Positions 30,338 to 64,000 of a DNA stretch of 64,000 nucleotides are shown here, in pieces. Each line of letters begins with the position of its first letter. Positions within the stretch are counted from its first letter, which is position 1. The notes beneath the pieces are model-generated. The model did not search any database. It worked only from the letters and a program-made list of their open reading frames with translations, and was not told where the DNA came from. The position numbers and the translations under genes were made by a program. The DNA is from Adineta ricciae (Eukaryota; Rotifera; Eurotatoria; Adinetida; Adinetidae), in assembly GCA_905250025.1 (NCBI GenBank), contig CAJNOJ010000326.1, positions 36,178 through 100,177 of the forward strand, in the 5' to 3' direction.

Positions 30338-30345
30338 CATACATA

Positions 30346-31436
30346 GGGGTATCAATAAGTTCTCGTAGTTTCATTTATTTTTATCTACACACGCGATTTT
30401 CACGATTTGTTCACAGCAAATGTTCGAAGTACTTCCCCTTATGTTTCACACAAAGTTTCATTCGCTCAGTCCATTTATGAAATGTCTTTCGATATTCATC
30501 AATGGGTATCGAATTCAGCTCCTTTGTTACAGCTCAAGCAAGGCTTATACTGTCGGATACGTATCGAGATTTCGTTTCAACTGATCATAAAGCCAGAAAT
30601 CACACGAGCCATGATCTGGATTTTATTCTCTTCAAGGTAGTCGAAAACGAGATTATTGACACGTGGTCGAGTATTGTCATGATGGAGTTTGATGCTGTGC
30701 GTTGTCGATCGCGGTCTTTTCTTGCGTAACTTGCGAACTAATTGGAATAGACATACGTCGCGATAGTAAGCAGCATTGACTGTTGTTTTCGAAGGTATTT
30801 CATGTATCAGTAGAGGTCCGTCAGTCATAAAGAAGACGACAAACATGGTTTTTCGCTCGAATTGCTGTCGTCTCACTTCAGTCACAGGGCTTGCTCCCAC
30901 TGGAATCGACGCTTTTGACTCTTGTTTCGATTTGATTCGGCGGTGATAGATCCCGGTTTCATCGCCTGTAACTATGTCGGGAAGTCTCCACGTACCTTCT
31001 TCGAGTTTCCGTAAGTTCTCTGTGCAGATGTCGATTCGTTGCTGTTGTTGAGCTTGGGTGAGGCTATGAGGGACCCATCTCGACGAGATTTTCCAAAGGT
31101 GAAGATGATGCTTGAGAAACGACAAACCCAAAGTGCAACAGTACTGAATGATATACTATCGCGCCCGTGAGCAGTGACTAATTCGCGGTGAATTTCCGTA
31201 GCTGCGAAGCCCAGTAGAAATCGAGTCTTGATATATGCACGCAGGCGCTCCTTTTCCATCGCGAAAACAGGGGTCCTGGGAAATTGTTTGGGTATTTTCT
31301 CTAACGAGCACTAGAGAAACTTCGTATTGGTGGTTTGATGCACAACAGATGTCGGTACGAGACCATATTAAATTCATGGTCGAAATCGGTTGGGGGAAAA
31401 AATTAGGAAGCAACTACGAGAACTTATTGATACCCC
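30346..31436 (-). mobile_element. mariner-family transposon with deleted transposase
   Basis: 1091 bp with inverted ends GGGGTATCAATAAGTTCTCG (25 bp in all) flanked by TA on both sides (30344-30345, 31437-31438). The transposase is on the minus strand: N-terminal helix-turn-helix IKTRFLLGFAATEIHREL, then a missing stretch of about 60 residues, then WVPHSLTQAQQQQRIDICTE. The catalytic motif with the first Asp is TGDETGIYH, the second is HHDNTRP, and the third (CDFWLYDQ) is in another frame after a small deletion that removed PPYSPDLAP-like residues. It is non-functional. It sits in copy D's 3' flank and is absent from block 1. Confidence 0.85.
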
Positions 31437-33552: not shown

Positions 33553-34518
33553 ATGCCCATCTCTAATTACATTCGTTCATGGCTTATGTTGACTCCGATG
33601 TTTCCATCCATTTTAATTATTCTGTTTAATCTATATCATTTCATAGGTAATCAAACACTTCGTAGAGCTCTCAACAATCATGTGATTATTCTCCTACTTA
33701 TCTGCTCATTTATTGAACAAGTTACTGATGTTGCTTGGCAAAGTCATTATTATCGAACGGGTACGGCATTAATTTCCACACCTATTTTTTGTGGAATATG
33801 GACATTTTCTGGGGGAGCGTTTTATAGCATGATATATATTCTTATGGCTTGGGCATCATTCGAACGACATATTCTTATTTTTCATCCCAGCTGGTTCGCA
33901 ACGAAAACAAAGCGCCTATTTTTTCATTATTTTCCTTTGTCTGGATGTATTATTTGGCCTCTCATATTTTACTCTCTATCAGCCTTCATTTTACCTTGTG
34001 ACGTAGCAATTAGATACGACAACATATTCTGTGATCGATATATCTGTTCCTCAGATCCATATTGGCCAGGATTGATTGATAGTTTTGGTCATTATATAGG
34101 AACAGCATTTATGACAATCATTTTTAATATAGCATTGTTTGGTCGGGTATTATACTCTCGATATAAAGTTCATAGGAGTGTTGATTGGAGAAAGCACAAG
34201 AAGATAGCATTTCAATTATTGCCATTATCTATGCTGTACCTTTTCTTACAGCTTCCACCAATGACTTTGTATGCTGCGTATTCCGCGGGTGCTACATATG
34301 TCACCGCAAATGATTTCTATGATGATTCTCTCTTTTTTACTTATTGGATTGTACAGTTTATGCCGTTGGCATGTGCAATATCGTTACCTGGATTGAAAGA
34401 GAAATGTAAAAATTGCCTGTTATTTTGGCGAAGAGACCATCGTATCAATCCACAAGCAGTGATGTGGACTAATGGACAATTTACTCAGTCAGCAAGAATA
34501 GCACTCGAAGCACAATGA
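33553..34518 (+). CDS. rhodopsin-like 7TM receptor, block 3 copy
   Basis: Single exon, 321 residues. Seven hydrophobic segments, with FERHILIF at the DRY position. Cys in IFCGIWTF before TM3 could pair with the loop-2 cysteines (LPCDVAIRYDNIFCDRYICS). Loop 3 is short and basic (YSRYKVHRSVDWRKHKKI). TM6 has LQLPP instead of CWLP. There is no NPxxY. About 15 residues differ from the 39.18 kb copy, mostly conservative, so both frames have been maintained. The ligand is unknown. Confidence 0.82.
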   Translation: MPISNYIRSWLMLTPMFPSILIILFNLYHFIGNQTLRRALNNHVIILLLICSFIEQVTDVAWQSHYYRTGTALISTPIFCGIWTFSGGAFYSMIYILMAWASFERHILIFHPSWFATKTKRLFFHYFPLSGCIIWPLIFYSLSAFILPCDVAIRYDNIFCDRYICSSDPYWPGLIDSFGHYIGTAFMTIIFNIALFGRVLYSRYKVHRSVDWRKHKKIAFQLLPLSMLYLFLQLPPMTLYAAYSAGATYVTANDFYDDSLFFTYWIVQFMPLACAISLPGLKEKCKNCLLFWRRDHRINPQAVMWTNGQFTQSARIALEAQ

Positions 34519-35459
34519 GTTGAATTCAATAACTATAGAATTTAATATTTATTGTAAGAACTTGCGGGCAAACGAAATGCCGTCAGCACGTCAACGCCTT
34601 TTCAAAGCTTGGGTGAGGTGAGCAGCAATGACGCGTTTCGCCTTTGGCATACAAGAACTCATTAGATGGCTTATGATTTCGTATGATTCAATTCGAAATA
34701 AACATTTTCAAAAGAGAAAAGTTGATTTCAAGCCAAATCATGGCAAAATGAACCGCTTTCGATGAGACTCAAGAATGCATCGTGTCATGTTGATGCTTTC
34801 TGAATTTGTGAGATCTGTAGCTGTCGTCTTTACCTTGCAATCGTTGGTATTGATGAAGCTGGTCGCATTTTCACTATATGTAGTATCCAGGTTTGAGTGT
34901 TTTGGTTTTGAATTGCAATTTTAATAAATTGAGGACGGTCGATTGCTTTAGAAAGATTGAGAATGCTTTTCAGATTGTTGCACTTTACGATTAACGTAGT
35001 CGATGTATGGCTAAAGACACTCGTTGTGGTCAGAATGTAATGAAAAATACTGTATTTTATATAACTTATAAGAAGGAGTATACCACTTCCTTTGAAATGA
35101 GATGAAAAATGAATACAGCATGAGAAATACTGTCAGTATATATAGTCATTAGTAGAAACTGAGCTTTGGCCTTTTCTAGAAAGGATTCCATGTAGGCAAG
35201 CGTTTTCCCCAGTAATTTACATGAGAATGCTTCAAAATTGGTATTTTAAAAAGACATATCCAGGTCGAACAATCCCATACTCGTATCCAATATAGGATTT
35301 TATCAGATCCTACAGGAATTCGACGGATCCAAAACATGGATTTCCGGGATTTTCTAAGGGTCATCATGGAACATAGTTAAAAAGATCGCTCATAAAATTT
35401 GCAACCACCGACGGGATTTTTCTAGTCGGATTCGGCGAGACCCGATCGGATTTGTTGAC
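34519..35459. other. 3' flank of the receptor, no gene supported
   Basis: Contains the decayed hammerhead at 34625-34670 and a facing motif near 34565-34600 (CAAACGAAATGCCGTCAGC) that resembles a second hammerhead half. No ORF is supported. Confidence 0.45.
34625..34670 (-). ncRNA. decayed hammerhead ribozyme
   Basis: On the minus strand: GCCAT, core CTAATGA (G5 changed to A), weakened stem II, GAAACGCGTC, then ATTGC. Same family as the copy at 5.2 kb, including stem I sequence and CGCGTC. The G5 change should abolish cleavage. CTCACCTCACCC follows at the cleavage side. Confidence 0.6.
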
Positions 35460-36390
35460 CTGGGATCGGGTGTCTTCTGCTCGCATCTGTTGAGTAAGTT
35501 TGACCATACAATTCAATTGTAGAATTAATTAATGTGCCACACGTTGTTGGATTTCTTTTTTCGAAAGTTGTTTATTAGATTTCTTCTTGTTTTCCGGCGA
35601 AAAGTCAGTGTGTAATGAGGCACCGTATACAAGCCGATACTGTAAATAATCACCAAAGAATATCACGTTTATACCACCGAATGGAATTTGCGGATCGCCA
35701 TGTTTAGCGGCACAAAGAATTTGATTGAGTTTTCCGAGTAAAGTCAAACCAACCATACTCATTTCATCAATCAAGAGATACTCTACAAGTGTCCATTCTT
35801 TTTCCAGTTTCAAATCGCCCGGTTTAATAGTTCCTGCCCTTCCAGAATTGCGATGTTCGCCTAAAAATGAATGAATAGTCATGCCACCAATTTCAGTAGC
35901 TGCAATTCCAGTAGGTGCTAGCTTTCGCATCTTTTGTATTCTGTTTGTAACAAGAAAATATTCAGTCACAGCACGAATAAATTGTGATTTTCCTGTACCA
36001 CCACACCCGGGTATACACATGATAAGTTGCCCATTGTTATCTCCGATATGGATGATATTTTTCAATTTATAGTTATATAGAATCATGTGCATGAATATAC
36101 CTGCATGTGATTGTTTGTCGCCATCAAGATGGCTTGTTATTATCATGAACGCAGCTTTTTGCTCTCTGTTTAGTGTGTATTGATCAGCAATGCTCTTGTG
36201 ATCACAATACGTTGTACTTGTTAATGAAACAACTCGAAGAATTGAGTTATAATTATCAGATATGTTTATGTTTGAACTAGTTGAATTTATCAGTGTTACA
36301 ACTGTATCTTCTATATCGTTAATGTTCGATTCATCGCCTGTTTTATAATGTTTGCCAGTGATTAAATTTCGTATTGACCCAGGTTATTAT
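35460..36390 (-). mobile_element. Helitron relic, Pif1-type helicase N-terminal part
   Basis: The minus-strand frame 36146-35529 has the Walker A motif CGGTGKSQFIRAVTEYF, Walker B-like YLLIDEMSMVGLTLLGKL, and FGGINVIFFGDYLQ, as in Helitron helicases (rolling-circle transposons). The upstream part TLNREQKAAFMIITSHLDGDKQ continues past 36146. Homologous to 52.7-51.7 kb with very similar wording. The Rep/HUH domain and the C-terminal helicase motifs are missing here. The 3' side breaks off near 35460. Confidence 0.85.
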
Positions 36391-38229: not shown

Positions 38230-39174
38230 GATAATTAGTTTTTTACATTACAAGTTCGTCACTAAGTAATTTCAGTGCTTTTATTAAGATTGATGTCAAC
38301 GAAAATCCCTTAAAACAATTTCCCTATGGATAATCATGACAAATAGATTTATTTTTATGTTATTAATCTTTTAAATTCACTAAAGTAAAGTAACGCATCT
38401 AATGTATGAACAACCAAAATTTTAGTATTATAGATGGTTAAGATACATTTGCAGACTTGCATATAAATTTTTGTTTTCGATTATATCTTATGATAGGACT
38501 ATTTTGCTTGTGTCAAAGAATCAGTTGTAATAACTTAACTATGTGAAACCAAATGAGAAAACAATCGGATAATGACAAAAGATGTTAGTGATAGTTTCGA
38601 AAAGAGAGCATATGAGGACATTGTTTTAGGTAACGGACATATTACCCGTAAATGACGTTGCGTCCTTTTGTTAAATTGCTGATGCATTCTCATCAGGAAT
38701 AAAACGAATATGCGTATGTTATAAATCGTATCAGTCATCCAATACGCTCTTTCTTGTTATTCTTCTTTTGGTGCTCTCTCTTTTTTCATTCTCCTGTAAG
38801 TTCTCGTCCTCTTTTTTTCTTCTCTTTTTTTCTCCAGTATATGAGTGCATGCTATACGTAAAATAGTTACATTTAGATGTAAATCATATAGACGAATAAA
38901 CAATGTGTCTCAAGACACTAAAACCTATGTTTTTCTATTTGTCTGAGTGATTCGAATACACTTGTAACTCATTTACATAAATCCTTAACAGCTTGTAGAG
39001 CGGTACTTACATTTTTCGTTAGAATTTCTATATCAGTTTTCTGCTAACTATTGTGAAAATAGAAGTGTTCATTGCGTGTCCTAATACTAACACAAACGTT
39101 AGATAACTAACTATGTGTAAACATTCTACTTTTACATTTTAGTTTATTTCCAACATATTCAAAGTCATTCGGCG
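38230..39174. other. 5' flank of the block 4 receptor, no gene seen
   Basis: Matches 32.62-33.55 kb. Contains C/T-rich runs near 38785-38840 and the presumed receptor promoter. Confidence 0.5.
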
Positions 39175-40140
39175 ATGCCCATCGCTAATAACATTCGTTC
39201 ATGGCTTATGCTAGCTCCGATGTTTCCATCCATCTTAATTATTCTGTTTAATCTATATCATTTCATAGGTAATCGAACACTTCGTAAAGCTCTCAACAAT
39301 CATGTAATTATTCTCCTACTTATCTGCTCACTTATTGAACAAATTACTGATGTTGCTTGGCAAAGTCATTATTATCGGACGGGTACGGCGTTAATTGCCA
39401 CACCTATTTTTTGTGGAATATGGACATTTTCAGGGGGAGCGTTTTATAGCATGACATATATTCTTATGGCGTGGGCATCATTCGAACGACATATTCTTAT
39501 TTTTTATCCCAGCTGGTTTGCAACAAAAACAAAGCGTCTGTTTTTTCATTATTTCCCGTTGTCTGGATGTATTGTTTGGCCTCTCATATTTTACTCTCTA
39601 TCAGCCTTCATTCTACCTTGCGACGTAGCAATTAGATACGACAACATATTCTGTGATCGATATATCTGTTCCTCAGATCAATATTGGCCAGGATTGATAG
39701 ATAGTTTTGCTCATTATATAGGAACAGCATTTATTACAATCATTTTTAATATGGTACTGTTTGGTCGGGTGTTATACTCTCGATATAAGGTTCACAGGAG
39801 TGTTGATTGGAGAAAGCACAAGAAGATGGCACTTCAATTATTGCCATTATCTTTGCTGTATCTTTTCTTACAGCTTCCACCAATGACTTTGTATGCTGCA
39901 TATTCCGCTGGTGCAACATATGTCACCGCAAATGATTTCTACGATGATTCTCTCTTTTTTACTTATTGGATTGTACAATTGATGCCATTGGCATGTGCGA
40001 TATCATTACCTGGCCTGAAAGAGAAATGTAAAAATTGTCTATTGTTTTGGCGAAGAGACCATCGTATTAATCCTCATGCAGTGATGTGGACTAATGGACA
40101 ATTTACTCAATCAGCAAGAATAGCATTCGAAGCACAATGA
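39175..40140 (+). CDS. rhodopsin-like 7TM receptor, block 4 copy
   Basis: Single exon, 321 residues, same length and features as the 33.55 kb copy: FERHILIFYPSW at the DRY position, the Cys pattern LPCDVAIRYDNIFCDRYICS in loop 2, and LQLPP in TM6. Differences include NRTLRKALNNHV for NQTLRRALNNHV and ALQLLPLSLLYLF for AFQLLPLSMLYLF. Both copies are intact, as expected for homologous alleles or a recent duplicate pair. It ends AFEAQ. Confidence 0.82.
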   Translation: MPIANNIRSWLMLAPMFPSILIILFNLYHFIGNRTLRKALNNHVIILLLICSLIEQITDVAWQSHYYRTGTALIATPIFCGIWTFSGGAFYSMTYILMAWASFERHILIFYPSWFATKTKRLFFHYFPLSGCIVWPLIFYSLSAFILPCDVAIRYDNIFCDRYICSSDQYWPGLIDSFAHYIGTAFITIIFNMVLFGRVLYSRYKVHRSVDWRKHKKMALQLLPLSLLYLFLQLPPMTLYAAYSAGATYVTANDFYDDSLFFTYWIVQLMPLACAISLPGLKEKCKNCLLFWRRDHRINPHAVMWTNGQFTQSARIAFEAQ

Positions 40141-40247
40141 GTTAAATTCAATAACTATAGACATATAAGATTTACTGTAAGAGCCTGCGGGCAAACGAAA
40201 TGCCGTCAGCACCTCAACGCTTTTTTAAAGCTCGGGTGAGGTGAGCA

Positions 40248-40293
40248 GCAATGACGCATTTCGTCTTTAGCTCACAAAGACTCATCACATGGC
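40248..40293 (-). ncRNA. decayed hammerhead ribozyme
   Basis: On the minus strand: GCCAT, core GTGATGA (C3 changed to G), stem II GTCTTT/AAAGAC intact with six pairs, GAAA, TGCGTC, ATTGC. The counterpart at 34.6 kb kept C3 but lost G5, so the two copies decayed separately. Stem II and GAAA closely match the 5.2 kb ribozyme. CTCACCTCACCC follows on the cleavage side. Confidence 0.65.
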
Positions 40294-41489
40294 TTATGAT
40301 TTCGTATGATTCAATTCAAAATAAACATTTTCAAAAGAGAAAAGTTGACTTCAAGCCAAATCATGGCAAAATAAACCACTTTCGATGAGACTCAAGAATG
40401 CATCGTGTGATGTTGATGCTTTCTGAATTTGTGAGATCTGTAGCTGTCGTCTTTATCTTGCAATCGTTGGTATTGATGAAGCTGGTCGCATTTTCACTAT
40501 ATGTAGTATCCAGGTTTGAGTGTTTTGGTTTTGAATTGCAGTTTTAATAAATTGAGGATGGTCGATTGCTTTAGAAAGGTTGAGAATGCTTTTGAGATTG
40601 TTGCACTTTACGATTAACGTAGTCGATGTATGGCTAAAGACACTCGTTGTGGCCAGAATGTAATGAAAAATACTGTATTTTATATAACTCACAAGAAGCA
40701 GTATAGTACTTCCTTTGAAATGAGATGAAAAATGAATACAGCATGAGAAATACTGTCAGTATATATAGTCGTTAGTAGAAACTGCGCTTTGGCCTTTTCT
40801 AAAAAGGATTCCATGTAGGCAAGCGTTTTCCCCAGTAATTTACATGAGAGAATGTTTCAAAGTTGGCATTTAAAACAGACATATGTGTGAAGTATTCATA
40901 TTATCAAAATGTAGATATGGTTGGGAATGATAAAAGAATTTTTAAAGGGAACGTTTTGAAGGTATGTCTTTGCAATGTGCCATTATTCTGTATGAGATAC
41001 AAATATCCTTTTTCAAAGAAGGAATGCAAAGGCTGAGCAAAGTTCAGTTGAAACAGCTACTAGTCAAAAAATGCATGCTATATATTGAATGTTTGTCTTA
41101 ATAACAAGCAATAATAGTATAATGAATAGAAAAAATATATAGAGAGATTGATAAATTTTCGTATAAAACAAAGACTTTGAAGCTTACAATAATATTCTTT
41201 AACCATAGTGACAGAGAATAAAAAAACAATACATTTTTTTTCTGTAGCTTTGGATGCAGTTCCAGATATTGTCAGATGGATAAGCGCGTCGTCTATATCC
41301 GTGTTTTATTTCGTTTTTTCTGTTATCTTACAATAATTAGAAGAGACTGAAAGCATCTTTTAAAATAAATAAAATGTTTGCGAAATGAAATCCACCGACT
41401 AAAACATTCTCCTGAAATTTTCTTTTTCACAAAATTGCAGCGTATTCCTTAAAAGTCATCTAGAGTATAAAGTGATAAACCTGTCACCC
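40294..41489. other. no gene supported
   Basis: The 3' flank of block 4 to about 40870, then unique A/T-rich sequence. A frame at 40453-40692 (minus) has no family resemblance. Confidence 0.45.
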
Positions 41490-43307: not shown

Positions 43308-43372
43308 TGATTAAGGTATATTGTTATTATTAAAATTTCATAAAACATGGTTTGGCAGGAATGTTGAGGGTA

Positions 43373-45094
43373 CATGGTTGGAAAAAATATGATTCCAGAG
43401 GGGGGTATCACCATCATTTTATATGGAGTAGATGATGAATGTTATACCGAATGAAAGCCCGTGAAAAATGGAATTTATTGATACTAAATAGTGAGGATTA
43501 TGAAGACCTTAGTGTATCAAACTCTCGAAGTTTATATAATTCTGTAAAATACAAAAGTTATAAGCTGCTTTTACCGGCTTGAAAGGCCAAAAACAAGAAA
43601 GTTTCTCAGAAAAAAAATAAAAAGGGTATGCTGTAGTGTTCATATAACGCAGTCTCGACTGAAAGGATATTATTATCTTTTTACATTCTGCTATATATGC
43701 CTCGTGATAGAGATTAATAGTGATTTTTTGTTTTTCTTCTGAAAGAAAGCTACGAAAGAGAGAACTTTAAATAGTTCGTGAAGTGGTATATAAGCTCCAT
43801 TTCAAATTGATATAAATCATAAAAAGAAAATATATTCTTCTAGTAAGTCGACAATGGATTGCGAAGAAAATTCGCCATACAACCCGATTGGTCACAGAAT
43901 GGTGGGGAAAATCATATGACCAATGCTTTACTGATTATTCAAACGCCGATTGCAAGCTCAAATTATCACAAGCAAGTCAAGATATCATTCACAAAGAAAG
44001 TGGTCGACAAGGGAAAAGTTATTTTGTTGTGGCGAGACAGATTGCAGAAGAGCAATCAATAACTATCGTCATAGAGAAGGATTGAAGCCATTTCATGTTA
44101 TTTCAAAGCCATTAAAAACTGAAACTCATATATCAAATCGTTTATGGTTATGCGGCTGGTTAGAAGATTGGACTGAAGAAGACTTTTTTCATCTTGCACC
44201 ATCTGACGAGTTTTATGTATGGATTGTTCGTAGACCGAATTATCAAAATAATAGAACTTGGGCCTTAAATGTCGAAGATATTGAAGATGATGACAGGTAC
44301 CGTGAAACGGTCCAAAATCAAGTATGCATTGGGATTTTTATTATGTTTACTTGCAAGGAATTACTTTGGGTGATTAAATATAAGGGCTAGTCTTGGACTG
44401 GTGATTATTTTCGTGATATAATTCTAACTCAAAATGTAATACCTTTTTTAAGTGATGAAGAAAATGTTATTGATCCTGATGAAGTTACATTTGTTCATGA
44501 TAAGGCACCGTGTATGCGAGCAAACAAAACCCAACATTTGCTTCAAGACAACAAAGTGAAGTTTTGAGGCAATGACATCTGGCCAGGAAATTCGCCTGAT
44601 CTCAATGTAGCAGAACGTATTGGATCAATAATGAAAGATGAAGTTGAGAAAAAAATGTTATCACAGACTGGACATAATCGATGTCTTGAGGATACACTCA
44701 AAGTGCATCTTACAAACGTTTTGACCAATATCGAGACAGACACTGATTTATTTCAAACACTTTTACATTCGTATCCATCACGTATCCGTGCAGTAAAGAA
44801 AGCTAACAGTCGTCACACTCATTATTGATTCTATTCATTAAATGTTGAAAAAATAAACTATTTTGGTACACATTCAGTTTGAATTTCGCTTCGGAAATAG
44901 CTTTCCTCTTACTTCCTGTCAATGAAATATAATAAGTTCTGAAATTTTAATACACTAAGGTCTTCATAACCCTCACTATTTAGTATCAATAAATTCCATT
45001 TTTCACGGGCTTTCATTCGGTATAACATTCATCATCTACTCCATTTAAAATGATGGTGATACCCCCCTTTGGAATCATATTTTTTCCAACCGTG
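43373..45094 (+). mobile_element. Tc1-like transposon with 145-bp inverted ends, transposase decayed
   Basis: 1722 bp between TA dinucleotides (43371-43372, 45095-45096). The inverted ends are 145 bp (43373-43517 and 44950-45094) with only a few mismatches, starting CAYGGTTGGAAAAAATATGA. The transposase is on the plus strand: N-terminal remnants from 43853, a frame change near 43950, then HLAPSDEFYVWIVRRP with the first Asp, VTFVHDKAPCM with the second, and NSPDLNVAERIGSIMKDEVE with the Glu of a DDE triad. The C-terminus ends SRHTHY at 44827. An in-frame TAG after YKG (44390) and a TGA after NKVKF make it inactive. Confidence 0.85.
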
Positions 45095-45096
45095 TA

Positions 45097-49306: not shown

Positions 49307-49308
49307 TA

Positions 49309-50066
49309 CTTAGGGCAATCCAAAAGTTGTGAGCCAGGTGTCTTATTCCATGAAACCAAGGTCTATAAAAATTTTCTTTTTCTACTAACAGATAGAGCGT
49401 CTTTCGCTCTATCCTCCCATGCTATTTGGTCTACTCCAACTAAGATTATTATAACAAAATTTTGATACGAACTTTTTTTTGCATCACTCTAGCTGGTAGC
49501 AATAGTGCAAATTTCTTTTTGATTATTTAATGCATCTTATGGAAAAACAAAATACACCATAAGATGCAGCGAGAAAAGCTCTATAATTTTTGTCAATGTA
49601 GCTTGTTTTGGTTGTTTTCAAAAAGGTGAAATACTATGCAATCCATTTTCATACGGTAGAAATTTGGTCGCTCAAAGTTCTGTCCATTTTGAAAACAAGA
49701 AGTGGTAGTACAAGAAAAAGCATTCGCATGTAACTGGTAGAGCTTTTAACGCTGCATTGTATGGTGTACTTTATTTTTTAATAAAACGGATTACATGATG
49801 AAAAGAAAACAATAAAAACCACGTACAGATGATAAGATAAGCTATTGNATAATCAAAAAGAAATTTGCACTATTGCTACCAGCTAGAGTGATGCAAAAAA
49901 AAGTTCGTATCAAAATTTTGTTATAATAATCTTAGTTGGAGTAGACCAAATAGCATGGGAGGATAGAGCAAAAGACGCTCTATCTGTTAGTAGAAAAAGA
50001 AAATTTTTATAGACCTTGGCTTCATGGAATAAGACACCTGGCTCACAACTTTTGGGTTGCCCTAAG
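49309..50066. mobile_element. 758-bp fold-back element with 218-bp inverted arms
   Basis: Arms 49309-49526 and 49849-50066 are inverted copies with few differences, starting CTTAGGGCAAYCCAAAAGTT. TA flanks both sides (49307-49308, 50067-50068), as for Tc1/mariner-type elements. The 321-bp middle also shows weaker inverted similarity (49540-49585 against 49735-49785) and a small hairpin TGCATCTTATGG/CCATAAGATGCA. There is no transposase. The N at 49848 sits exactly at the inner edge of the right arm. Confidence 0.7.
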
Positions 50067-50068
50067 TA

Positions 50069-50969: not shown

Positions 50970-52690
50970 ATAATCAAGCCAGTTAAACGTTTCACTCTTG
51001 ATAATGGTACATAGACTGCAGCGATGTCATCTGTATCCTTTGGTAACTTAAGATCAATGACAACTTTGCTCAAAGTTTGTCATTGACTTTTGTGAGTTGT
51101 GGTAGAATATGCGAGTACAAGAGGTAGCGCGCATCGTTTAATCAATAACATTGCCTTTCAATTGGTTTTTGATTTGTTGTTGACTTTCGGAAGAATATCC
51201 GAAATGTCTACCTGAAAGGTTTGTTCCATTATTGGTATCGGGATGAGATTTGGTTGAAGTTTTTGAAGATTCCATTCATACCGTTAATTAATCCGAGTTC
51301 AATAGCAATGTTTTGTGTAAGAATAACTGGCATTCCAGAAACTAACGGTAACAAGCCCGGTAAGTGTTCAGCCTTACTGTCAGATAATTTTAATAATTTT
51401 TTTGCAAGCACAGGCTCTTTCACAGCTGTGTCTTACAAAGTCCTCAGCAACACATACCATTGGATTGCAACCTTTTTGTATTGCATGATGAATTGCCGAC
51501 CTGTAGTTAAATTAGATTCGTATTTCATTTCTAAACACGAGCATGGGAGCCTCAAACAAAGAAACATACAAATCATGTTTATTTAGAATAGATATATATA
51601 TATTTATTACTTGATTCCGTGGCGATTCACGGAGAGAGATGGTTGGCTGTCCGAAAACGCGCGTCAAATAATATTTCATAATCTTCATGGCTACATTGAC
51701 CTTGACGAAGTCGTTCAAGTAACTGCAGATATCGGGTGTCTTCTGTTCGTATCTGTTGAGTAAGTTTAACTACACAATTAATCTGTAGAATTAAAGAACG
51801 TGCAACGCGTTGTTGGATTTCTTTTTTTCCGAAGGTAGCTTATTAAATTTGTTTTTGTTTTCCGATGAAAAGTCAGTGTGCAACGGGGCATCGTATACGT
51901 GCCGCTGTTGTAAATAATCACCAAAGAATATAACATTTATACCACTGAATGTAATTTGCGAATCGGCATGTTTAGCGATACGAAGAATTCGATTGAGTTT
52001 TCCGAGTAAAGTCAAACCAGCCACACTCATTTCATCAATCAAGAAATATTCCACAAGCGTCCATTCTTTTTCAAGTTTTAAGTCGGCCGATTAAATGGTT
52101 CGTGACTTTCCAGAACCGCGTTGTTCGCCTAAAAATGAACGGATATGTAGGCACTAGCTTTCGCATCTTTTGTATTCTGTTTGTGACACGAAAATATTCA
52201 GTAACAGCACGAATAAGTTGTGATTTTCCTGTACCACCACGCCCGGGTATACACATGATAAGTTAACCATTGTTCTCTCCTATATAAATGATATTTGTCA
52301 GTTTATGATCATATAGAACCATACGCATGAGCATACCTGCATGTAATTGTTTGTCACCGTCGAGATGACTTGTTATTATCATGAATGCAGATTTTTGCTC
52401 TCTGTTTAGAGTGTATTGATCAACAATATTCTTTTGATCACAATACGTTGTACTTATTACTGAAACAACTGGAAGAGTTGAGTTATAATTATCAGATATG
52501 TTTATGCTAGAACTAGTTGAATTTATCAGTGTTACAACTGTATCTTCCATATCGTCAATGTTTGTCAGTGATTAAACTGAGTATTGATTCGAACTAGGTC
52601 AGATGTTGAAGGAACAAATGGTGCTATCGGTTGATAATTATCAGCAAACGATTTAACAGGTAAATGAAAGTTTTATCAAAGTATGATATC
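50970..52690 (-). mobile_element. Helitron relic, Pif1-type helicase with C-terminal motifs
   Basis: On the minus strand: SFADNYQPIAPFVPSTSDL (near 52650), TLNREQKSAFMIITSHLDGD, GRGGTGKSQLIRAVTEYF (Walker A, near 52240), FLIDEMSVAGLTLLGKL, INVIFFGDYLQQRHVYDA. Then come LPGLLPLVSGMPVILTQNIA (51380-51310) and the C-terminal DTDDIAAVYVPLSRVKRL in a shifted frame near 51040-50970. It is a more complete version of the 35.5-36.4 kb relic. Frameshifts, a deletion after RKLVPT and several stops show it is dead. The HUH nuclease part is not seen. Confidence 0.85.
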
Positions 52691-53565
52691 ATCGTGTAGT
52701 TTTGGATGAATCAGACACACACTTACACGAACGACATAACATCATACGGTTTAGTCAGTCTAATGCACAATCAAATAAGTACATATGTATTCACACCAAT
52801 GCTTCAATACGCATGGTTCTCCAGTGGTTTAAAACGTGTAGGTCCTTCTCCATTTGTCAACGTGAATCAAATTTGCTTTGAGAGTTGAGAAAGTTATATG
52901 CAGTTTGAAGAGAAACACTGCAATGAGTCTGTTTTTGAAACTTGTGCTCAATGTTCGAAAAAAATGTTTTCAACACTTTTATCAGCTATCATATCTATTA
53001 AAAACACAGCAAATATTTGTACAAAGCGTGGTTCTGCGAAAGTTCTGTATTACTCTCTTTGTCACAAATTGTGCGTAACATATGTGGAAAAACAAAACAG
53101 AAAAAAAAACAGTACCTTCTCTTTCAGGTGAACAACCAAAATCTTCAAAAAGCCGTTTTTAAAAACGAAATCAGCATGTTCGATCACTTACTGTCAAGTG
53201 AGTTTCAGCTTGAAAGCGAGGAGGCATTTGGTGACCTTCCCTTGTCAGGGGAAAGATGGATTAGCCAATAGTAATATCTGATTACATCAGGTGAGAGGGC
53301 CGATCAAAAATAACGCAATCCAAGGTAGAAAAAGTTTCTACATTCCTCTTCTCTCACCCTCACAATAAATCGTTAATGTAAGTTACGATAATCGAAATTT
53401 ATTTTGAAATGAAAAGACAATAAGACAACTAGGCAGAGTAAAGTATTTTTCGAAAACTATTCAATAAGATTTCAGAAATCAGATAGAAACAAAATTAGTA
53501 TATAGCTTGAGAAATTTTCTTTGAAAGAATGTATTTAATAAATATTTGTAAGAGTAATTAAAGTT
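52691..53565. other. no gene supported; decayed ORF remnants
   Basis: Frames at 52706-53271 read CNESVFETCAQCSKKMFSTL and FKNEISMFDHLLSSEFQLES in successive frames, with a possible intron near 53120. They may be a dead transposon gene that I cannot name. A CTCTCACCCTCAC tract lies at 53351-53363. Confidence 0.35.
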
Positions 53566-56500
53566 TCAACATTTATTTGTGCTTAAAATAATATCGATAG
53601 TTTGATTAGATGGATTATACATTATTATATCTTTATAATTGTCACTGTTTAAATCGTTCACAGCAAAAGGATGACTTTCAATGGGATTTTCTCCGGTAAA
53701 AATGGTCATGTTTTTAAAAAATTTATATCCATTTCCAAAAAGTGCAACTGTACCATTCGTTATAGGATTTTGTCCAATGATATCTTGATAACCATCTCCA
53801 TCAAAATCAACTATACGAATAGGATGGGCCATAATCAAACCAGTATCGATAATATATTCCACCGTTAGATCTAGTTGTTGATAGTCGATATTACTTATTA
53901 ATTTAATCATAGGTCTACATTCATAAAAAATAATAAAATCCGATAGAGCATCGTTATCGAAATCATTTACAATCACTGAATGAATAGGTAAAAAAGAGTA
54001 TTGGGTAGGAAACATCTTTACGTTAAATAATCCTTGACCATTTCCAAAAAGTACGAAGACGCGTATCTGGTTCATGAAGATACCAGTAGTGATTATATCG
54101 AGATGACTGTCATTGTTGACATCAGTGATAGCAAACGAACTCGCAAAAATTTTGGACCCAAGATCCGGTATATGAATCTCATTTTGTGTAGGGAAAGATC
54201 CGTTACCAGATCCCATCATTATAATTACCGTATCAAAAGAATTTAAACACGCAAGGTCTAAAATATTATCATGATTGAAATCACCCATATCTAACTTCAC
54301 TATTTCAATATGAAAATCTGTAAGAATAGTACTGATCGGTGAACTGTATTCATAATTACCATTTCCCAAATAAGCATCGATAAAGTTATTCCCGCTGTTT
54401 ATCACAAAATCAAGACATTTATCATTGTTAAAATCGCCAATAAGTAGAAAACGTATGGTTGTATTCAGAGATATTTTTTTATTTTCAATTGTTGCATTAC
54501 TAAATCCAAATAAAATAGATATTTCATTTGATTGAGAAGATGAAATAATGATATCATTGTGCAAATCATCATTCATATCAGCAACATGTATATGAGTATC
54601 AGATGGTGAGATAATCCAATTGCAAATTGATCTTGATTGGAATATTATCGAACAATCTATAGAAAAAAATTTCATAATAGATTTAAGTCATTTTCACTAA
54701 TCATTATGAGAAATTTTCACTTACTATTATTGATAGTAGAATTTGTCATATTTGTTGGTTTTGCTAAAAACAAAAACGGAAACTACTGGTTATTTCATAC
54801 CTAGAAAGATCAAATCCGTACTAGTGGTTTCTTTTGTAAATTGATATCGAGCAAAAAGGATCGAAAATATCGTTAGAGTTAATATTACTATTACTACTGC
54901 CAGCATCCATTTTAAAAGAATCTTGCACGAAAACTGCGCCGTCGATTGAATTGTTCTATTATAGTAATAAGTGGAAAGAAACCATTATGAATCGAATGAG
55001 AACAAAAATAATTTACTCAAACCTTGCAATCATTGAATTCGACGTGGATTTGCATAAAATATTCCTATTATTTAATTCATTGGATGCTATCTGAATAGTA
55101 GTGTTAGATTGAACAATAATTCTTTGTTTCTTTCGATACCGATAGACTTGAAGTATAATTTTAACTAATTTAGGAGTGAGCCATCGAAGAACAATCGTCA
55201 GACCACCTTGAAAACCAATCAAAAGTGTTAATGTGTAGAATGAATTAAGCTTTTGTATATAAGTATATGAGCAAAATTCAATTTTGCAGTGCTGAAAATA
55301 AGATAAATAATCTGTTGTTGTATTCAAATCTTCAACGAACAATTCATTAATAAGTTCATTTACAGTTGCGTTGGTAGAAAACCGTTTCATATTTGTAGTA
55401 GACAGAGGAGCAAATGAGTCGTTTGACATCTGATTGCTAGCGTATTTTTGAATTAATTTGATACATGATGAGTTAAAGAAACATTCAAGTGTAGAAGAAA
55501 GTAACGACTCACTTGGTGTACACCCCATTTTCAAACCTACGATTAAAGTAGCTTCCGTCGAATTTGTTTGCAGAAATTTTGCTTGGGTCGTGCAATTGTG
55601 ATGCATTGCACAAGAACATTCATTATCATAAATTACACTTATAATTTTTATAAAAAAGTCGGCACTTTCTTCCCGAGTACCAACATATTGAAAATTAGTT
55701 CCATATGTAGAAATAATTCCATTTCCATGGTTGATATATCGAATTAAATGAAGTATTTGAGCAATTTTATTCTTAGGTTTGGATTTCATTTGGTAAATAT
55801 TCGAATGAATGCGTGATTGAAATTCGCTTTCGGACAAAAGTTCAGTAGTAACAAGGAATGAGCTAAGAAATTGATCAATTGATGTTTTTACTGATTCGAT
55901 AGAAAGTTCACACAATCCTTGAAGAAATTGTAAATGTGCCGATAGAAAACGACGATAATCTTTTATATCATAAATAGATAAATTAGAAAAAATATCTCTC
56001 GTGAGATCATCTCGCCATTTCTCCGAAATAAATTGACTCTTACAAATCTATTCAAAAATCACAAATACTTTTTCATAATATATTGATCTTTTTACCTGAT
56101 GGAATATTGGTACAATGGTAACATACTGTTTATATGTTGAACTAATTGATAAACAAGAACACCGTAATTTATCATCATACTTATGTTTTAGATGATTATA
56201 TGAATCGAATGTTGGCTCGTTGAATGCTTTTGTTAGCGTATCTGGTTCAGTGATTGTATATAAAGCAACGCCGATAAGTGCACTGACAAGTAAAATAAAG
56301 TAGATACGAGTGGCCCATTGACCAATACTTTTCGCAGTTGTTCGATCAGTATCCGTTCCAAAATCTCGCTTATGAAATATATTCAGATTGATTAATACAT
56401 TGTTTAGATGTTTGAAGAATGTTTTCATGATATTAATAACTTTATCGAAGAATTTCACAGGAACTATATCAAAGAACAGTATGAAGGAAGAGATTAGAAA

Positions 56501-59500
56501 TTTAATAAATTTACCTTGGGTTACTTGAAGATGTGCTGTTGATTGTCTTGTAAATATAAATACTTTTAATGAAAGTACAAATTTAACCAGGTATGGCGTA
56601 AGAAGTTGCGATGCAAGAGTAATTCCGCTGATCATAGATACTATTGTAGTTAAAATTTGGATAAGAGTTGCACGAATTTCAATAGAACAAGTACAAAACT
56701 TTGGAGCACATGACTTATAATAGCTCGCGTATGATATAGATGAATTCCATTTTTCGATCATTACATTTTCAACTATTACTTCGATTGAACTATTTGGTGG
56801 AAACTTGCTTGATTTTTCGTCATAAACTAATGGGCGAGCGTCATTCCATGGATTTTCTATTATCAATCCCGTGTGGAAACTTTTAAGTAGTTTTCTTAGA
56901 ATTGTAGAACAATTGAAATGTAGATGAAGACATTCAACTGTTGATAAGAAAAGTGAATCAATAGAAAAGCAACCTTCGACATTGTTTAATAATGCATAAT
57001 CGTATGCAGGTATACCAGATAATACCTGTTGCTCGTTTTGTTGGAGAACAAGTGAACGCCGGCAGTATTTGTTAGTTGCACAAATGCATTTGCGAGAACT
57101 TGTATTTGTGCTAGGAAACGCATTTAAACCAAAATCAACCTGAAAAAGCAAATAAGCTTCTTTTGTTCTCTTAAGTAATAAATATAGAAATAAAAATCAG
57201 TAAAAATTATAAAAAGACATTCTTTCGTTTTATTTTATGACGTACCTTCAACAATAATTGATTATCTTCTTCGGATATGACTTCATTTCCAATCAAGTTT
57301 AATAAGCTTTTGTCTTGGATTGGTGCTGATTGAGAATTAAAAGGTTGATCAACTTGAATGACTAGGCGAACTGTTTTAATAAGTTCAGCAAATTCAACTG
57401 TTATTGAACGAAAGAATTCAATCAATATTGCATTGAATTGTTTATTAAAGTCATCTTTGACAATAACATTCAAACTAATTAAGTCGTTCATAAGAAAACC
57501 CTCGATAGCATTATTGACCGTTTTATTAGCTAGTATACATAAGTCCGATAAAAACTGAAATTGTGACTTTGCAGGGTTTAGCCAGTCTTTGTTCTCATTG
57601 GTAGAAACAAGCAAGCTGTTCAAAATGGAACGCCAACGTTCGGTAACAAAATCACTCGAACATATACGATGTAAAATTACAGATAATGTGATAAATTTGT
57701 CATAAGATGTCGTTATCGACGAACATGGACATTTCAGTTTGTTCATACATGATAATTGATGATAACTATAATCATCCCATGCTGGATCTGATATAATCTT
57801 TGTCACTGTTTGACTTTTCAGTGAAGTAGATAAAATAATAATAATAAACGCACCTAGTAGTGGAAAAATCAAACATGGCAAAGATTACATAATTATTTTC
57901 TATAGAGTAAAGATAAACATACTTGAAAATAAGATTAAGTGAACACGTGTAATAATCTTTTCTTGTGCGATATTTTCTTCTGTTCGATCAGCATTAGTCG
58001 CAAATAAATTTATTTGTTTCAGCCAGTCAACAAAATATCGTGGACATGTTCGCAAATGTACTAAAAAGTCAATACTATTTTCAATTTCTTCAGAAAAAGA
58101 TAATAAATACTTCGATTATTATGATTGTTAGTTGATCGATTTTTAACTTTCATTACAATCTCAATTATACTTGGTGTTAATAATCGATAAATAAGGATGA
58201 GACCACCATAAAGGCTGATTATAAGAGTCAGTGCACCAAAAAATTTTGTCTGTTGTGTTGCACTGTATGTACAATACGCTGGTGCACATGTTTCAAAATA
58301 AATTGAATAATTTGCATTCGTTAGCCATTCATTAATAAAAATTTGGCGTAAATAATCATACACAGTATTATTTTGTTCTTGTACAGGGAGAATATAGTTT
58401 GTTACGTTCCAATGTATCTTTAATAAGAAAAGGTTTAATATAAACAAAAAACAATATTGAAGACAAGTCGTATACATACTTCTTCAGGTGTCGGAAAATA
58501 AGTGTTCAATACGTTTAAACAATCATCATCAGAAAAACAACTGAGTTTGTTAGCAAGAAACGCGTCGAATACAATACATCCTTGAAAAAATCCCTTGATT
58601 GGGTGCTGTTTTAAAGAAAATGAAAATTTCAAGTAGGTATAAAATCTCCAAAATGTCAGATTCTCCTCTTATCGTACGCATCTATTCTCAATTTCGAACC
58701 CTTAATATCAAAATCTTACATATACTCTCATCTCCAAGACAATATTTAAGACAGCGACTGATTGCATAGCGGACATACAAAGAAACGATCATTTTCTGTG
58801 TATATTGATATACGTTACATAAATGATGAATACTCACCGCATGCCCAGTCAGTGCCGTTAGTATTGATTCGAACAACGGATGTTTATTCATTCCATAACA
58901 TGTAGAATCGCCCGTCGGAGCTATCTCCAGAAGTAAATTCCAAAGTGCGGTAAAAACATACTTTTGTTCCGGTGAATCTGTAGTATGAGAAGAATCAACA
59001 TGCGCATTAGTCTCCGACATTAACATAAAGCGATTCGTACGGGTTGTAGTTCTAAGATAGTCTATATATGAAATAATTCGCGTAGCTGTGCTATGCTTGG
59101 AGTATTCAACGATAGATTTTATTTGAGTGTGCAATTGTTTCTCGGACAAAAGTTCGACACTAACAAGTTCTCGATTGCGTAAATCAATTTGATGTTGCTC
59201 CTTTATATTATTACAGAAGGTACATAGATTCGCCAGAAGTTTGAACTAAATAGAAAGTAGTCATTTTTGAACATGATATATCGAATAGAGTATCGTTTAT
59301 GTAAACCTTTCAACTCTAATAGACGAGTTTTCAATGCGATTTCCCCACAAAATTTGCATCCTTTAATTCTAATAACGCGATACAACATTTTACCTGTTTA
59401 TTATTGTTTTTTATACTCAAAGAAAAATTGCTGAAGATAGAATATTGACTTACTTGAGCATAAGCTGTCCTCTGGAAACTCAGATAATGATATTGTTTAG

Positions 59501-60005
59501 TATTATTAATATAAAATGCTCGAATCCATTGATCAGTGACAAAAATACTTGAGCAAATAGGATGTAATGTAATGACAGTGGTAACGAATGTTTTATAGGG
59601 TATGTTAGCTTTTGTACATGGACATGTCAGAGTTGAAGAATGCTTCAATCGAAGTTGTTCAACGGCATTTGGAGTGAGATGAAGAACAGCAATTTTTTGT
59701 GGATGCGGCTGTAATAAAGCGATGTAAAAGATGATGTAGAGCGAAGCTAAAAGATAAATAATCAATAGGATGTCCGACTTTTTCTCGATCGTTGAAGCAT
59801 ATTTTAAAGAGAAAAATTTTCGGTGTCACTTACTGAGCACAAGTAAAACATATAACCAAGTTGAATACTTTTGATGTTGAAGAATAGTTGTTGATTGTTC
59901 TAATTGATTGTTGTCGTTATCGTTACCGATATCCGCTTCAGTCGCGAAAAGATTGTAAGCATGGATTTGCTTGTAGAGATAATTAAAGAAATATTTCAAA
60001 CACAT
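53566..60005 (-). CDS. polytopic membrane protein: three TM-ectodomain-TM modules plus FG-GAP repeats
   Basis: Eleven predicted exons: 60005-59834, 59746-59454, 59245-58838, 58605-58480, 58417-58148, 58109-57923, 57853-57246, 57139-56096, 56047-55023, 54955-54801, 54656-53566. They join in frame to 1792 residues. The N-terminus is cytoplasmic. Main TM segments lie near 48-69, 391-413, 476-496, 845-868, 966-983, 1306-1326 and 1393-1413. Each of three loops (about 320, 350 and 320 residues) starts with CxCxxxxxxY and ends YxxYFxxCxxxFC before a TM. The C-terminal ectodomain (about 1440-1792) has seven FG-GAP/VCBS repeats with DxNxDxxxD calcium loops (MNDDLHNDI, FNNDKCLDF, FNHDNILDL, VNNDSHLDI, FDNDALSDF, FDGDGYQDI, LNSDNYKDI). 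This suggests a seven-bladed beta-propeller. Role unknown; adhesion or ligand binding is an inference. The start is the least certain part. Confidence 0.78.
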
Positions 60006-60868: not shown

Positions 60869-60951
60869 ATAGAAACAAAATCATTATATAGCTTGAGAAT
60901 TTTTCTTTGAAAGAATGTATTTAATAAATATTTGTAAGAGTAATTAAAGTT

Positions 60952-63900
60952 TCAACATTGATTTGTGCTTAAAATAATATCGATAGTTTGATTAGATGGA
61001 TTATACATTATTATATCTTTATAATTATCGCTGTTTAAATCGTTCACAACAAAAGGATGACTTTCAATGGGATTTTCTCCAGTAAAAATGGTCATGTTTT
61101 TAAAAAATTTATATCCATTTCCAAAAAGCACAACTATACCATTCGTTATAGGATTTTGTCCAATGATATCTTGATAACCATCTCCATCAAAATCAACTAT
61201 ACGAATAGGATGGGCTATAATCAAACCAGTATCGATAATATATTCCAACGTTAGATCTAGTTGTTGATAGTCGATATTACTTATTAATTTAATTATAGGT
61301 CTAAATTGATAAAAAATAATAAAATCCGATAGAGCATCGTTATCGAAATCATTTACAATCACTGAATGAATAGGTAAAAAAGAAGATTGGGTAGGAAACA
61401 TCTTTACGTTAAATAATCCTTGACCATTTCCAAAAAGTATGAAGACGCCTATCTGGTTCATGAAGATACCAGCAGTGATTATATCGAGGTGACTGTCATT
61501 GTTGACATCAGTGATAGCAAACGAGCCCGCAAACATTTTGAACAAAAGATCCGGTATATGAATCTCATTTTGTGTAGGGAAAGATCCGTTACCAGATCCG
61601 ATCATTATAATTACCGTATCAAAAGAATTTAAACACGCAAGGTCTAAAATATTATCATGATTGAAATCACCCATATCTAACTTCAGTATTTCAATATGAA
61701 AATCGGTAAGAATAGTACTGATCGGTGAACTGTATTCATAATTACCATTTCCCAAATAAGCATCGATAAAGTTATTCCCGCTGTTTATCATAAAATCAAG
61801 ACACTTATCATTGTTAAAATCGCCAATAAGTAGAAAACGTACGGTTGTATTCAGAGATATTTTTTTATTTTCAATTGTTGCATTACTAAATCCAAATAAA
61901 ATAGATATTTCATTTGATTGAGAAGATGAAATAATGATATCATTGTGCAAATCATCGTTCATATCAGCAACATGTATCTGAGTGTCAATTGGTGAGATAA
62001 TCCAGTTGCAAATTGATCTTGATTGGAATATTATCGAACAATCTATAGAAAAAGAATTTTATAATAGATTTAAGTCATTTTCACTAATCATTATGAGAGG
62101 TTTTTACTTACTATTATTGATAGTAGAATTTGTCATATTTGTTGGTATTGCTAAAAACAAAAACGGAAACTACTGGTTATTTCATACCTAGAAAGATTAA
62201 ACCCGTACTAGTGGTTTCTTTTGTAAATTGATATCGAGCAAAAAGGATAGAAAATATCGTTAGAGTTAATATTACTATTACTACGGCCAGCATCCATTTT
62301 AAAAGAATCTTGCACGAAAACTGCTCCGTCGATTGAATTGTTCTATAATAATAATAAGTGGAAAGAAATCATTATGAAAAGAATGAGAACAAAAATAATT
62401 TACTCAAACCTTGCAATCATTGAATTCGACGTGGATTTGCATAAAATATTCCTATTATTCAATTCGTTNATATTGATCTTTTTACCTGATGGAATATTGG
62501 TACAATGGTAACATACTGTTTATATGTTGAACTAATTGATAAACAAGAACACCGTAATTTATCATCATACTTATGTTTTAGATGATTATATGAATCGAAT
62601 GTTGGTTCATTGAATGCATTTGTTAGCGTATCCGGTTCAGTGATCGTATATAAAGCAATGCCGCTAAGTGCACTGACAAGTAAAATAAAGTAGATACGAG
62701 TGGCCCATTGACCAATACATTTAGCAGTTGTTCGATCAGTATCTGTTCCAAAATCTCGCTTATGAAATATATTCAGATTGATTAATACATTGTTTAGATG
62801 TTTGAAGAATGTTTTCATGATATTAATAACTTTGTCGAAGAATTTCACAGGAACTATATCAAAGAACAGTATGAAGGAAGAGATTAGAAATTTAAGAAAT
62901 TTACCTTGGGTTACTTGAAGACGTGTTGTTGATTGTCTTGTAAATTTAAATGCTTTTAATGAAAGCAAAAATTTAACCAGGTATGGCGTAAGAAGGTGCG
63001 ATGCAATAGTAATTCCGCTGATCATAGATACTATTGTAGTTAAAATTTGGATAAGAGTTGCACGAACTTCAATAGAACAAGTACAAAACTTTGGAGCACA
63101 TGACTTATAATAGCTCGTGTATGATATAGATGAATTCCATTTTTCGATCATTACATTTTCAACTATTAATTCGATTGAACTATTTGGTGGAAATTTGCTT
63201 GATTTTTCGTCATAAACTAATGGGCGAGCGTCATTCCATGGACGTTCTATCAATCCAGTGTAGAAAGTTTTAAGTAGTTTTCTTAGAATTGTAGAACAAT
63301 TGAAATGTAGATGAAGACATTCAACTGTTGATAGGAAAAGTGAATCAATAGAAAAGCAACCTTCGACATTGTTTAATAATGCATAATCGTATGCAGGTAT
63401 ATCAGATAATACCTGTTGCTCGTTTTGATGGAGAACAAGTGAACGTCGACAGTATTTGTTAGTTGCACAAATGCATTTGCGAGAACTTGTATTTGTGCTA
63501 GGAAACGCGTTTAAACCAAAATCAACCTGAAAAAGCAAATAAGCTTCTATTGTTCTCTTAAGTAATAAATATAGAAATAAAAATCAGTAAAAATTATAAA
63601 AGACATTCTTTCGTTTTATTTTATGACGTACCTTCAACAATAATTGATTATCTTCTTCGGATATGACTTCATTTCCAATCAAGTTTAATAAGCTTTTGCC
63701 TTGGATTGGTGTTGATTGAGAATTAAAAGGTTGATCAACTTGAATGACTAGGCGAACTGTTTTAATAAGTTCAGCAAATTCAACTGTTATTGAACGAAAG
63801 AATTCAATCAATATTGCATTGAATTGTTTATTAAAGTCATCTTTGACAATAACATTCAAGCTAATTAAGTCGTTCATGAGAAAACCCTCGATAGCATTAT

Positions 63901-64000
63901 TGGCCGTTTTATTAGCTAGTGTGCATAAGTCCGATAAAAACTGAAATTGTGACTTTGCAAGGTTTAACCAGTCTTTGTTCTCATCGATCTGAACAACTGC
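60952..64000 (-). CDS. second, partial copy of the FG-GAP membrane protein gene
   Basis: Exons matching the first copy: 62042-60952 (FG-GAP, 1091 bp, same length), 62342-62188 (last TM, same length), 62468-62410 (end of exon 9 only), 63526-62486 (exon 8, one codon shorter: TGLIERPWND for TGLIIENPWND) and 64000-63632 (part of exon 7). Splice sites and frames are kept. Differences are few percent. The N at 62469 stands where about 990 bp (most of exon 9, equivalent to 55086-56079) is missing. The match to copy 1 breaks again at about 63987. It is probably the other homologue's gene in pieces rather than a true truncated paralogue. Confidence 0.75.

What the first reader, a model, noticed from the sequence alone, without database searches (positions are those of the whole stretch)
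53566..60005. Unusual modular receptor-like protein: three repeated TM-loop-TM units ending in an FG-GAP propeller
All eleven exons join in phase. Three loops share a start motif (C-x-C, then Tyr, then a Cys-x-Ser-x-Phe segment and Trp) and an end motif (Y-x-x-Y-[FY]-x-x-C-x3-[YF]-C), so the unit has been duplicated inside the gene. The predicted topology is seven TM segments with three large Cys-rich loops and an extracellular calcium-type propeller. I know of no described family with this layout. FG-GAP domains are known from integrins and many surface proteins.
Basis: partly seen in the sequence, partly recalled or inferred. Interest (0 to 1): 0.75.

Follow-up and report, generated by a model that had tools for sequence, protein, structure and literature searches.

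The report
Triplicated membrane protein with seven-blade propeller
A gene, probably from a bdelloid rotifer, appears to encode one large cell-surface protein made of three copies of an unnamed membrane unit followed by a seven-bladed calcium-type propeller; the layout is real and unusual, but its function is unproven.

Summary
On the minus strand, 60005-53566, eleven exons join in phase into 1,790 aa. The three TM-loop-TM units are homologous (blastp E 2e-25 to 3e-40; best of 200 shuffles 26.6 bits against 95-138). Units 1 and 2 share an intron at the same column and phase inside TM1. The tail matches Pfam FG-GAP, with seven D-x-[DN]-x-D-x3-D motifs. A partial second copy (96-97% identical) stays open, dN/dS 0.41 over 906 codons, although exons and introns diverge equally overall. 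Units 2 and 3 meet inside one exon; the joins of unit 1 and of the propeller rest on predicted splicing. The unit matches no Pfam family above cut-off, no NCBIfam family and no PDB sequence; no relative turned up in viral or prokaryote contigs. No animal database was available, so 'no described family' is only partly tested. Best reading: a lineage-specific calcium-dependent recognition or adhesion receptor built on three fused two-TM units. The boldest, a single-chain trimeric channel, is not excluded, but kinship with DEG/ENaC found no support. Both structure predictions failed.

The parts
53566..60005 (-). whole gene model: 11 exons (60005-59834, 59746-59454, 59245-58838, 58605-58480, 58417-58111, 58060-57923, 57853-57246, 57139-56096, 56047-55017, 54955-54801, 54656-53566), 1,790 aa
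   Evidence: in-phase GT-AG joins, no internal stop; frame kept in the second copy where it can be compared, i.e. exons 8, 10, 11 and parts of 7 and 9
58059..60005 (-). unit 1 (aa 1-436): TM1, Cys-rich loop 1 (11 Cys, 4 sequons), TM2; its last codon crosses intron 5
   Evidence: blastp to units 2 and 3, E 2e-25 and 2e-31; topology
56387..58058 (-). unit 2 (aa 437-935): TM3, loop 2 (14 Cys, 5 sequons), TM4, long linker with two further hydrophobic stretches
   Evidence: blastp to unit 3 E 3e-40; hydropathy; topology
55017..56386 (-). unit 3 (aa 936-1376): TM5, loop 3 (12 Cys, 7 sequons), TM6
56096..57139 (-). exon 8: one open exon holding the second half of unit 2 and the first part of unit 3, so this fusion does not depend on splicing
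   Evidence: the same frame is open in the second copy, 62470-63526
54844..54906 (-). TM7 (aa 1393-1413), in exon 10
   Evidence: highest hydropathy score of the protein, 2.88
53566..54656 (-). exon 11: FG-GAP domain with seven repeats, each with D-x-[DN]-x-D-x3-D
   Evidence: Pfam FG-GAP_3 8e-22, FG-GAP 6.5e-13; seven motifs at aa 1454-1762
54725..54763 (-). possible 39-nt micro-exon (in phase, GTAAGT donor, preceding intron only 37 nt); unresolved
60869..62468 (-). second copy, 3' part (exon 11, exon 10, end of exon 9), 96.4% identical to 53483-55081; starts right after a single N
62470..64000 (-). second copy, exon 8 and part of exon 7, 96.8% identical to 56080-57598 over 62470-63984; starts right after a single N and runs off the window

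Best explanation
One gene encodes a single multi-pass cell-surface protein. Shown by sequence: three homologous units, each with a short N-terminal stretch, a hydrophobic segment, a 317-351 aa loop (nine cysteine columns are shared by all three) and a second hydrophobic segment ending in L-T-P; then a further hydrophobic segment and an FG-GAP domain with seven repeats. Inferred: the loops and the propeller face outside; the propeller binds Ca2+ and recognises a glycan, matrix or cell-surface ligand, as integrin alpha chains and FG-GAP lectins do (recalled); the three linked two-TM units pack into one membrane assembly that holds the propeller and passes on binding as a change of shape. The gene arose by duplication of the unit within the gene, with the intron in TM1 copied along, probably in a bdelloid rotifer.
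For: In-phase exons; homology of the units beyond shuffles; shared intron column and phase; codon pattern in the second copy; FG-GAP match and seven motifs; 16 sequons in the three loops and 7 in the propeller segment against 2 in the four segments taken as cytosolic; K+R density 14-17% in three of the four cytosolic segments against 5-9% outside; weak PDB matches of the propeller to Psathyrella velutina lectin (E 0.0011), integrin alpha-V (0.0067-0.032) and cartilage acidic protein 1 (0.031).
Against: No transcript evidence. The N-terminal segment (K+R 6%) does not follow the charge rule. Two extra hydrophobic stretches in unit 2 could change local topology. Exons and introns diverge equally between the two copies overall (3.42% and 3.37%). 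Structure models of unit 3 and of the propeller were uninformative (mean pLDDT 41.2 and 35.9). Ligand, calcium binding and signalling are untested. No tool named the organism.
Confidence: 0.45

Rival explanations
1. Separate proteins joined wrongly by reading: a membrane protein of three units that ends at the in-frame TAA just after exon 9 (55015-55013), followed by a single-TM FG-GAP protein starting at ATG 54906, perhaps resolved from one transcript by spliced-leader trans-splicing.
For: Exon 9 read through meets TAA at once, and exon 10 has an in-frame ATG directly at TM7. Trans-splicing and operonic transcription are reported for rotifers as a lineage (PMC12460157, passages).
Against: Donor and acceptor at the exon 9-10 join are kept in both copies and give the right phase. 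No AATAAA, ATTAAA or AATACA was found between 55060 and 54900, the stretch scanned, while such signals lie after the final stop; an ATTAAA at 55076 lies before the TAA, within exon 9, in the first copy only. For unit 1: exon 6 has no in-frame ATG before TM3, so unit 2 cannot start there on its own; an AATAAA at 58014 lies inside exon 6. Units 2 and 3 meet inside one exon. None of this is transcript evidence.
Confidence: 0.2
2. A single-chain channel: each unit is a two-TM, large-ectodomain subunit of the DEG/ENaC or P2X layout, three of them fused into one pseudo-trimeric pore, gated or tethered through the propeller.
For: Three units; N-in, TM, 317-351 aa Cys-rich loop with sequons, TM, C-in; a glycine invariant in TM2 and L-T-P at its end.
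Against: No DEG/ENaC or P2X family in the Pfam scan listed up to E 10, where filters drop most matches above about 0.1; hhalign of the unit profile to one ASIC1 stretch gave probability 0.1 per cent, and not at TM2; TM2 scores of 20, 20 and 24 against ASIC1 TM2 were reached by 63%, 32% and 19% of 1000 shuffles, and 4 of 36 other TM helices of the window scored above 24. P2X was tested by the Pfam scan alone. The fold of the unit is unknown.
Confidence: 0.12
3. An adhesion or lectin-type anchor only: the propeller does the work and the units are a membrane platform without signalling or transport.
For: Only the propeller has a recognised domain; its best PDB match is Psathyrella velutina lectin, E 0.0011, a seven-bladed GlcNAc-binding lectin (recalled).
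Against: The units keep shared motifs, including the residues after TM2, and one TM would do for an anchor (inference).
Confidence: 0.2

Closest known systems
Integrin alpha chain propeller (FG-GAP)
   Same: FG-GAP repeats with calcium-type loops; weak match of residues 260-347 of the domain to integrin alpha-V (best E 0.0067)
   Different: the propeller is C-terminal behind the TM segments, all seven repeats carry the motif, and no integrin leg domain appears in the Pfam scan
Psathyrella velutina lectin (FG-GAP lectin)
   Same: best PDB sequence match of the propeller, residues 86-321, E 0.0011
   Different: the solved chain is 401 aa, without the three units; sugar-binding residues were not compared
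Expanded FG-GAP proteins of Adineta vaga
   Same: FG-GAP proteins are listed among gene families expanded in this bdelloid (PMC3846280, passages)
   Different: the passages seen describe no three-unit membrane part
DEG/ENaC and P2X trimeric channels
   Same: layout only: two TMs around a large Cys-rich extracellular domain (recalled), and three units here
   Different: no sequence relation found (DEG/ENaC; P2X)

Membership tests
FG-GAP beta-propeller proteins | match to the FG-GAP profile above the curated cut-off | tested here: met
   PF13517 78 bits against 26.9; PF01839 48.7 against 22.1
FG-GAP beta-propeller proteins | seven repeats with calcium-type loops | tested here: met
   seven motifs, spacing 48-53 aa
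FG-GAP beta-propeller proteins | closed propeller fold | tested here: inconclusive
   model from two near-identical sequences, mean pLDDT 35.9, all strands but not interpretable
Integrin alpha | propeller followed by leg domains and one C-terminal TM | tested here: not met
   propeller is C-terminal and TMs precede it; no leg domain in the Pfam scan
DEG/ENaC | sequence match to the family | tested here: not met
   absent from the Pfam list up to E 10, with HMMER's filters on; hhalign to one ASIC1 stretch 0.1 per cent; TM2 no better than shuffles
DEG/ENaC | trimer of two-TM subunits around a pore | not testable with these tools
   three fused units fit the layout; the fold model failed
P2X receptors | sequence match to the Pfam family | tested here: not met
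   absent from the Pfam list up to E 10, with HMMER's filters on; nothing else tried
G-protein-coupled receptors (seven TM) | 7tm profile match | tested here: not met
   no 7tm match for any of the four pieces; two other ORFs of the window do match 7tm_1, just above its cut-off

The most novel reading that the evidence does not exclude
A natural single-polypeptide, pseudo-trimeric membrane channel or transducer: three two-TM subunits of an unnamed family fused in one chain and controlled by an attached FG-GAP propeller.
Probability: 0.12. Interest if true: 0.8.

Novelty: new variant of a known kind. Interest (0 to 1): 0.5.

Why it matters
If transcript data confirm it, this is a membrane unit without a curated family among those searched, triplicated within one gene and joined to a recognition-type propeller. 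It would give a profile for a family search across animals and a clear structural question: do three fused two-TM units make one assembly with three-fold pseudo-symmetry? It may also bear on why FG-GAP genes are expanded in bdelloids.

Tried and rejected
Relatives: unit profile A1 against viral contigs (74 pattern stretches, none confirmed) and genome contigs (60, none confirmed). A hand-made pattern gave 3 genome loci and 1 viral locus; tblastn of the whole protein against these four showed nothing better than E 0.074 in the ten rows printed, taken as chance.

Structure: unit 3 (mean pLDDT 41.2) and propeller (35.9) failed; no fold search was run because matches of such models mean nothing. 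Four earlier alignments of exon pieces (A2-A5) were dropped because MAFFT misplaced the pieces; A6 was used, with pieces trimmed until they sat right, which leaves the middle of the loop with no second sequence.

DEG/ENaC kinship was proposed and tested and is rejected as a membership claim; a resemblance of TM2 by eye to ASIC1 did not survive shuffles. Weak Pfam matches of the units (Di19_C E 0.011, PqqF-like_C_4 0.097, DAPG_hydrolase 0.11, HMA_2 0.95, DPM3 4) are below cut-off, cover parts of single units and differ between units; taken as chance. Matches of the propeller below cut-off: TcdB_toxin_midN 0.0014, FAM234 propeller 0.14, PylC-like_N 0.17, XAC2610_fam 0.0001 and one more.

Papers: 9 of 10 searches were run; listings only, except passages of PMC3846280 and PMC12460157. 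Rotifer or bdelloid with FG-GAP listed one paper; rotifer with degenerin listed five, not opened; two searches listed none.

Full report
What is there. The gene lies on the minus strand. The first-stage coordinates, 53566-60005, are exactly the stop and start of a model of eleven exons and ten GT-AG introns that join in phase to 5,373 nt and 1,790 aa with no internal stop. Two introns are short (48 and 50 nt). A 39-nt micro-exon at 54763-54725 with a GTAAGT donor would also join in phase between exons 10 and 11; I cannot decide between 11 and 12 exons.

Is it coding? A second copy follows in the same direction at 60869-62468 and 62470-64000, 96.4% and 96.8% identical. Over 906 comparable codons there are 36 synonymous and 57 nonsynonymous differences (dS 0.066, dN 0.027, ratio 0.41; Fisher p 7.5e-5); codon positions 1, 2 and 3 differ at 28 of 906, 23 of 906 and 42 of 907 sites. 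No stop was seen in the copy over these codons. One exon indel of 3 nt and two single-base indels, both in introns, separate the copies; a 2-nt difference in exon 7 at the ragged last bases of the window, where blastn no longer aligns (63985-64000), was taken as an edge effect, and the few codons there are still in the count. Against this, exons and introns diverge equally overall (93 of 2719 and 11 of 326 sites). The copy covers exons 8, 10 and 11 and parts of 7 and 9; exons 1-6 have no such check.

The three units. Blastp between units gives 95, 111 and 138 bits, E 2e-25, 2e-31 and 3e-40, over 407-470 columns. In 200 shuffles that keep the composition of TM segments and loops, the best score was 26.6 bits. 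Forty-two columns are invariant in the alignment, nine of them cysteines. Introns 1 and 6 interrupt TM1 of units 1 and 2 at the same alignment column, 61, in phase 1, so the unit seems to have been duplicated with its intron; unit 3 has none there. The other introns inside the units are not shared. Units 2 and 3 are the most alike.

Is it one protein? The end of unit 2 and the start of unit 3 lie in one open exon (exon 8), so that fusion does not depend on splice prediction. Exon 6 has no in-frame ATG before TM3, which speaks against a separate start for unit 2 there. The join of unit 3 to TM7 is the weakest: read-through of exon 9 meets TAA at once, and exon 10 has an ATG at the start of TM7. 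Splice sites there are kept in both copies. No AATAAA, ATTAAA or AATACA was found in the stretch scanned, 55060-54900, while such signals lie behind the final stop; one ATTAAA at 55076 lies within exon 9 before the TAA, in the first copy only, and one AATAAA at 58014 lies inside exon 6. Trans-splicing and operonic transcription are reported for rotifers (PMC12460157, passages), so a two-protein reading stays open at about 0.2.

Topology. Nine hydrophobic stretches score above 1.5. Seven fit a regular N-in plan; two extra ones (aa 863-881 and 896-914) follow TM4 in unit 2 and, as a pair, would not flip the rest. With the seven-TM plan the three loops hold 11, 14 and 12 cysteines and 4, 5 and 7 sequons, the propeller segment 6 cysteines and 7 sequons, and the four cytosolic segments 2 sequons in all. 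K+R density is 14-17% in three of the four cytosolic segments and 5-9% outside; the N-terminal segment (6%) does not follow the rule.

The propeller. Pfam FG-GAP_3 (8e-22) and FG-GAP (6.5e-13) match. Seven D-x-[DN]-x-D-x3-D motifs lie 48-53 residues apart, as expected of a seven-blade propeller. PDB sequence matches are weak: Psathyrella velutina lectin (E 0.0011), a secreted esterase (0.0043), integrin alpha-V (0.0067 to 0.032) and cartilage acidic protein 1 (0.031).

What the unit is. No Pfam family above cut-off, no NCBIfam match up to E 1, no PDB sequence match up to E 10, no confirmed relative in viral or prokaryote contigs and only chance matches to a hand-made pattern. I had no access to animal genomes or proteomes. 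From memory only, similar unnamed sequences are common in bdelloid rotifers; that is a lead, not a test. The bdelloid origin of the window is likewise inferred, from the G+C of 33.8%, PIF1-helicase and mariner-type remnants and rhodopsin-type receptor ORFs and that recollection; no tool named the organism.

How it may work. Most likely a surface receptor or adhesion protein: the propeller recognises a ligand with calcium, and the three linked units form a single membrane assembly that holds it and responds. The plan of each unit, two TMs around a large Cys-rich ectodomain, and the number three recall trimeric DEG/ENaC and P2X channels. I tested DEG/ENaC kinship: nothing in the Pfam list up to E 10, with HMMER's filters on; hhalign probability 0.1 per cent to one ASIC1 stretch, and not at TM2; TM2 scores of 20, 20 and 24 against ASIC1 TM2, reached by 63%, 32% and 19% of 1000 shuffles, with 4 of 36 other TM helices of the window above 24. 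So kinship is not supported; the functional analogy is not excluded. P2X was tested by the Pfam scan alone. Structure prediction with the few sequences at hand failed for unit 3 and for the propeller.

Literature. Searches for bdelloid or rotifer with FG-GAP listed one paper, PMC3846280; its passages name FG-GAP proteins among expanded multigene families of Adineta vaga and suggest, for these families together, roles such as host defence, chemosensory perception, extracellular signalling and cell-cell communication. Searches showed no description of the three-unit layout, judged by titles and abstract beginnings, in an open-access library that lacks most subscription journals.

Verdict. The thing is an unusual architecture built from one known domain family and one unit that matched no curated family; it deserves transcript and family-wide follow-up, but nothing here demonstrates a new mechanism.

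Noticed in passing
window 60868, 62469, 25191 (also 36668, 49848): Five single Ns; three sit exactly where a near-identical second copy of earlier sequence begins (60869 copies 53483, 62470 copies 56080, 25192 copies 17584). They look like contig joins, so the apparent tandem copies may be alleles or other copies placed side by side by the assembly.
   Followed up: partly
window 17584-24928 and 25192-32502; 32850-34839 and 38466-40462: Further pairs of direct copies several kb long, 83-98% and 88-94% identical in the 20 of 30 families listed. They hold ORFs that look like seven-TM receptors by eye; the one scanned, 33541-34515, has no Pfam match.
   Followed up: no
window 35532-36383 and 51791-52571, minus strand: PIF1-like helicase remnants, possibly Helitron derived; 35532-36383 matches PIF1 at 1.3e-18; the second is a diverged copy, 84-88% identical.
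   Followed up: no
window 49307-49531 and 49844-50068: 225-nt inverted repeat, 98% complementary, with one of the single Ns (49848) inside its second arm; also a 165-nt pair at 43371-43535 and 44932-45096, 93%.
   Followed up: no
window 5813-6820, plus strand: 336-aa ORF matching the PrsW-type intramembrane protease family (9.7e-10).
   Followed up: no
window 30580-31155, minus strand: Mariner-type transposase remnant (Transposase_1, 2.9e-7).
   Followed up: no
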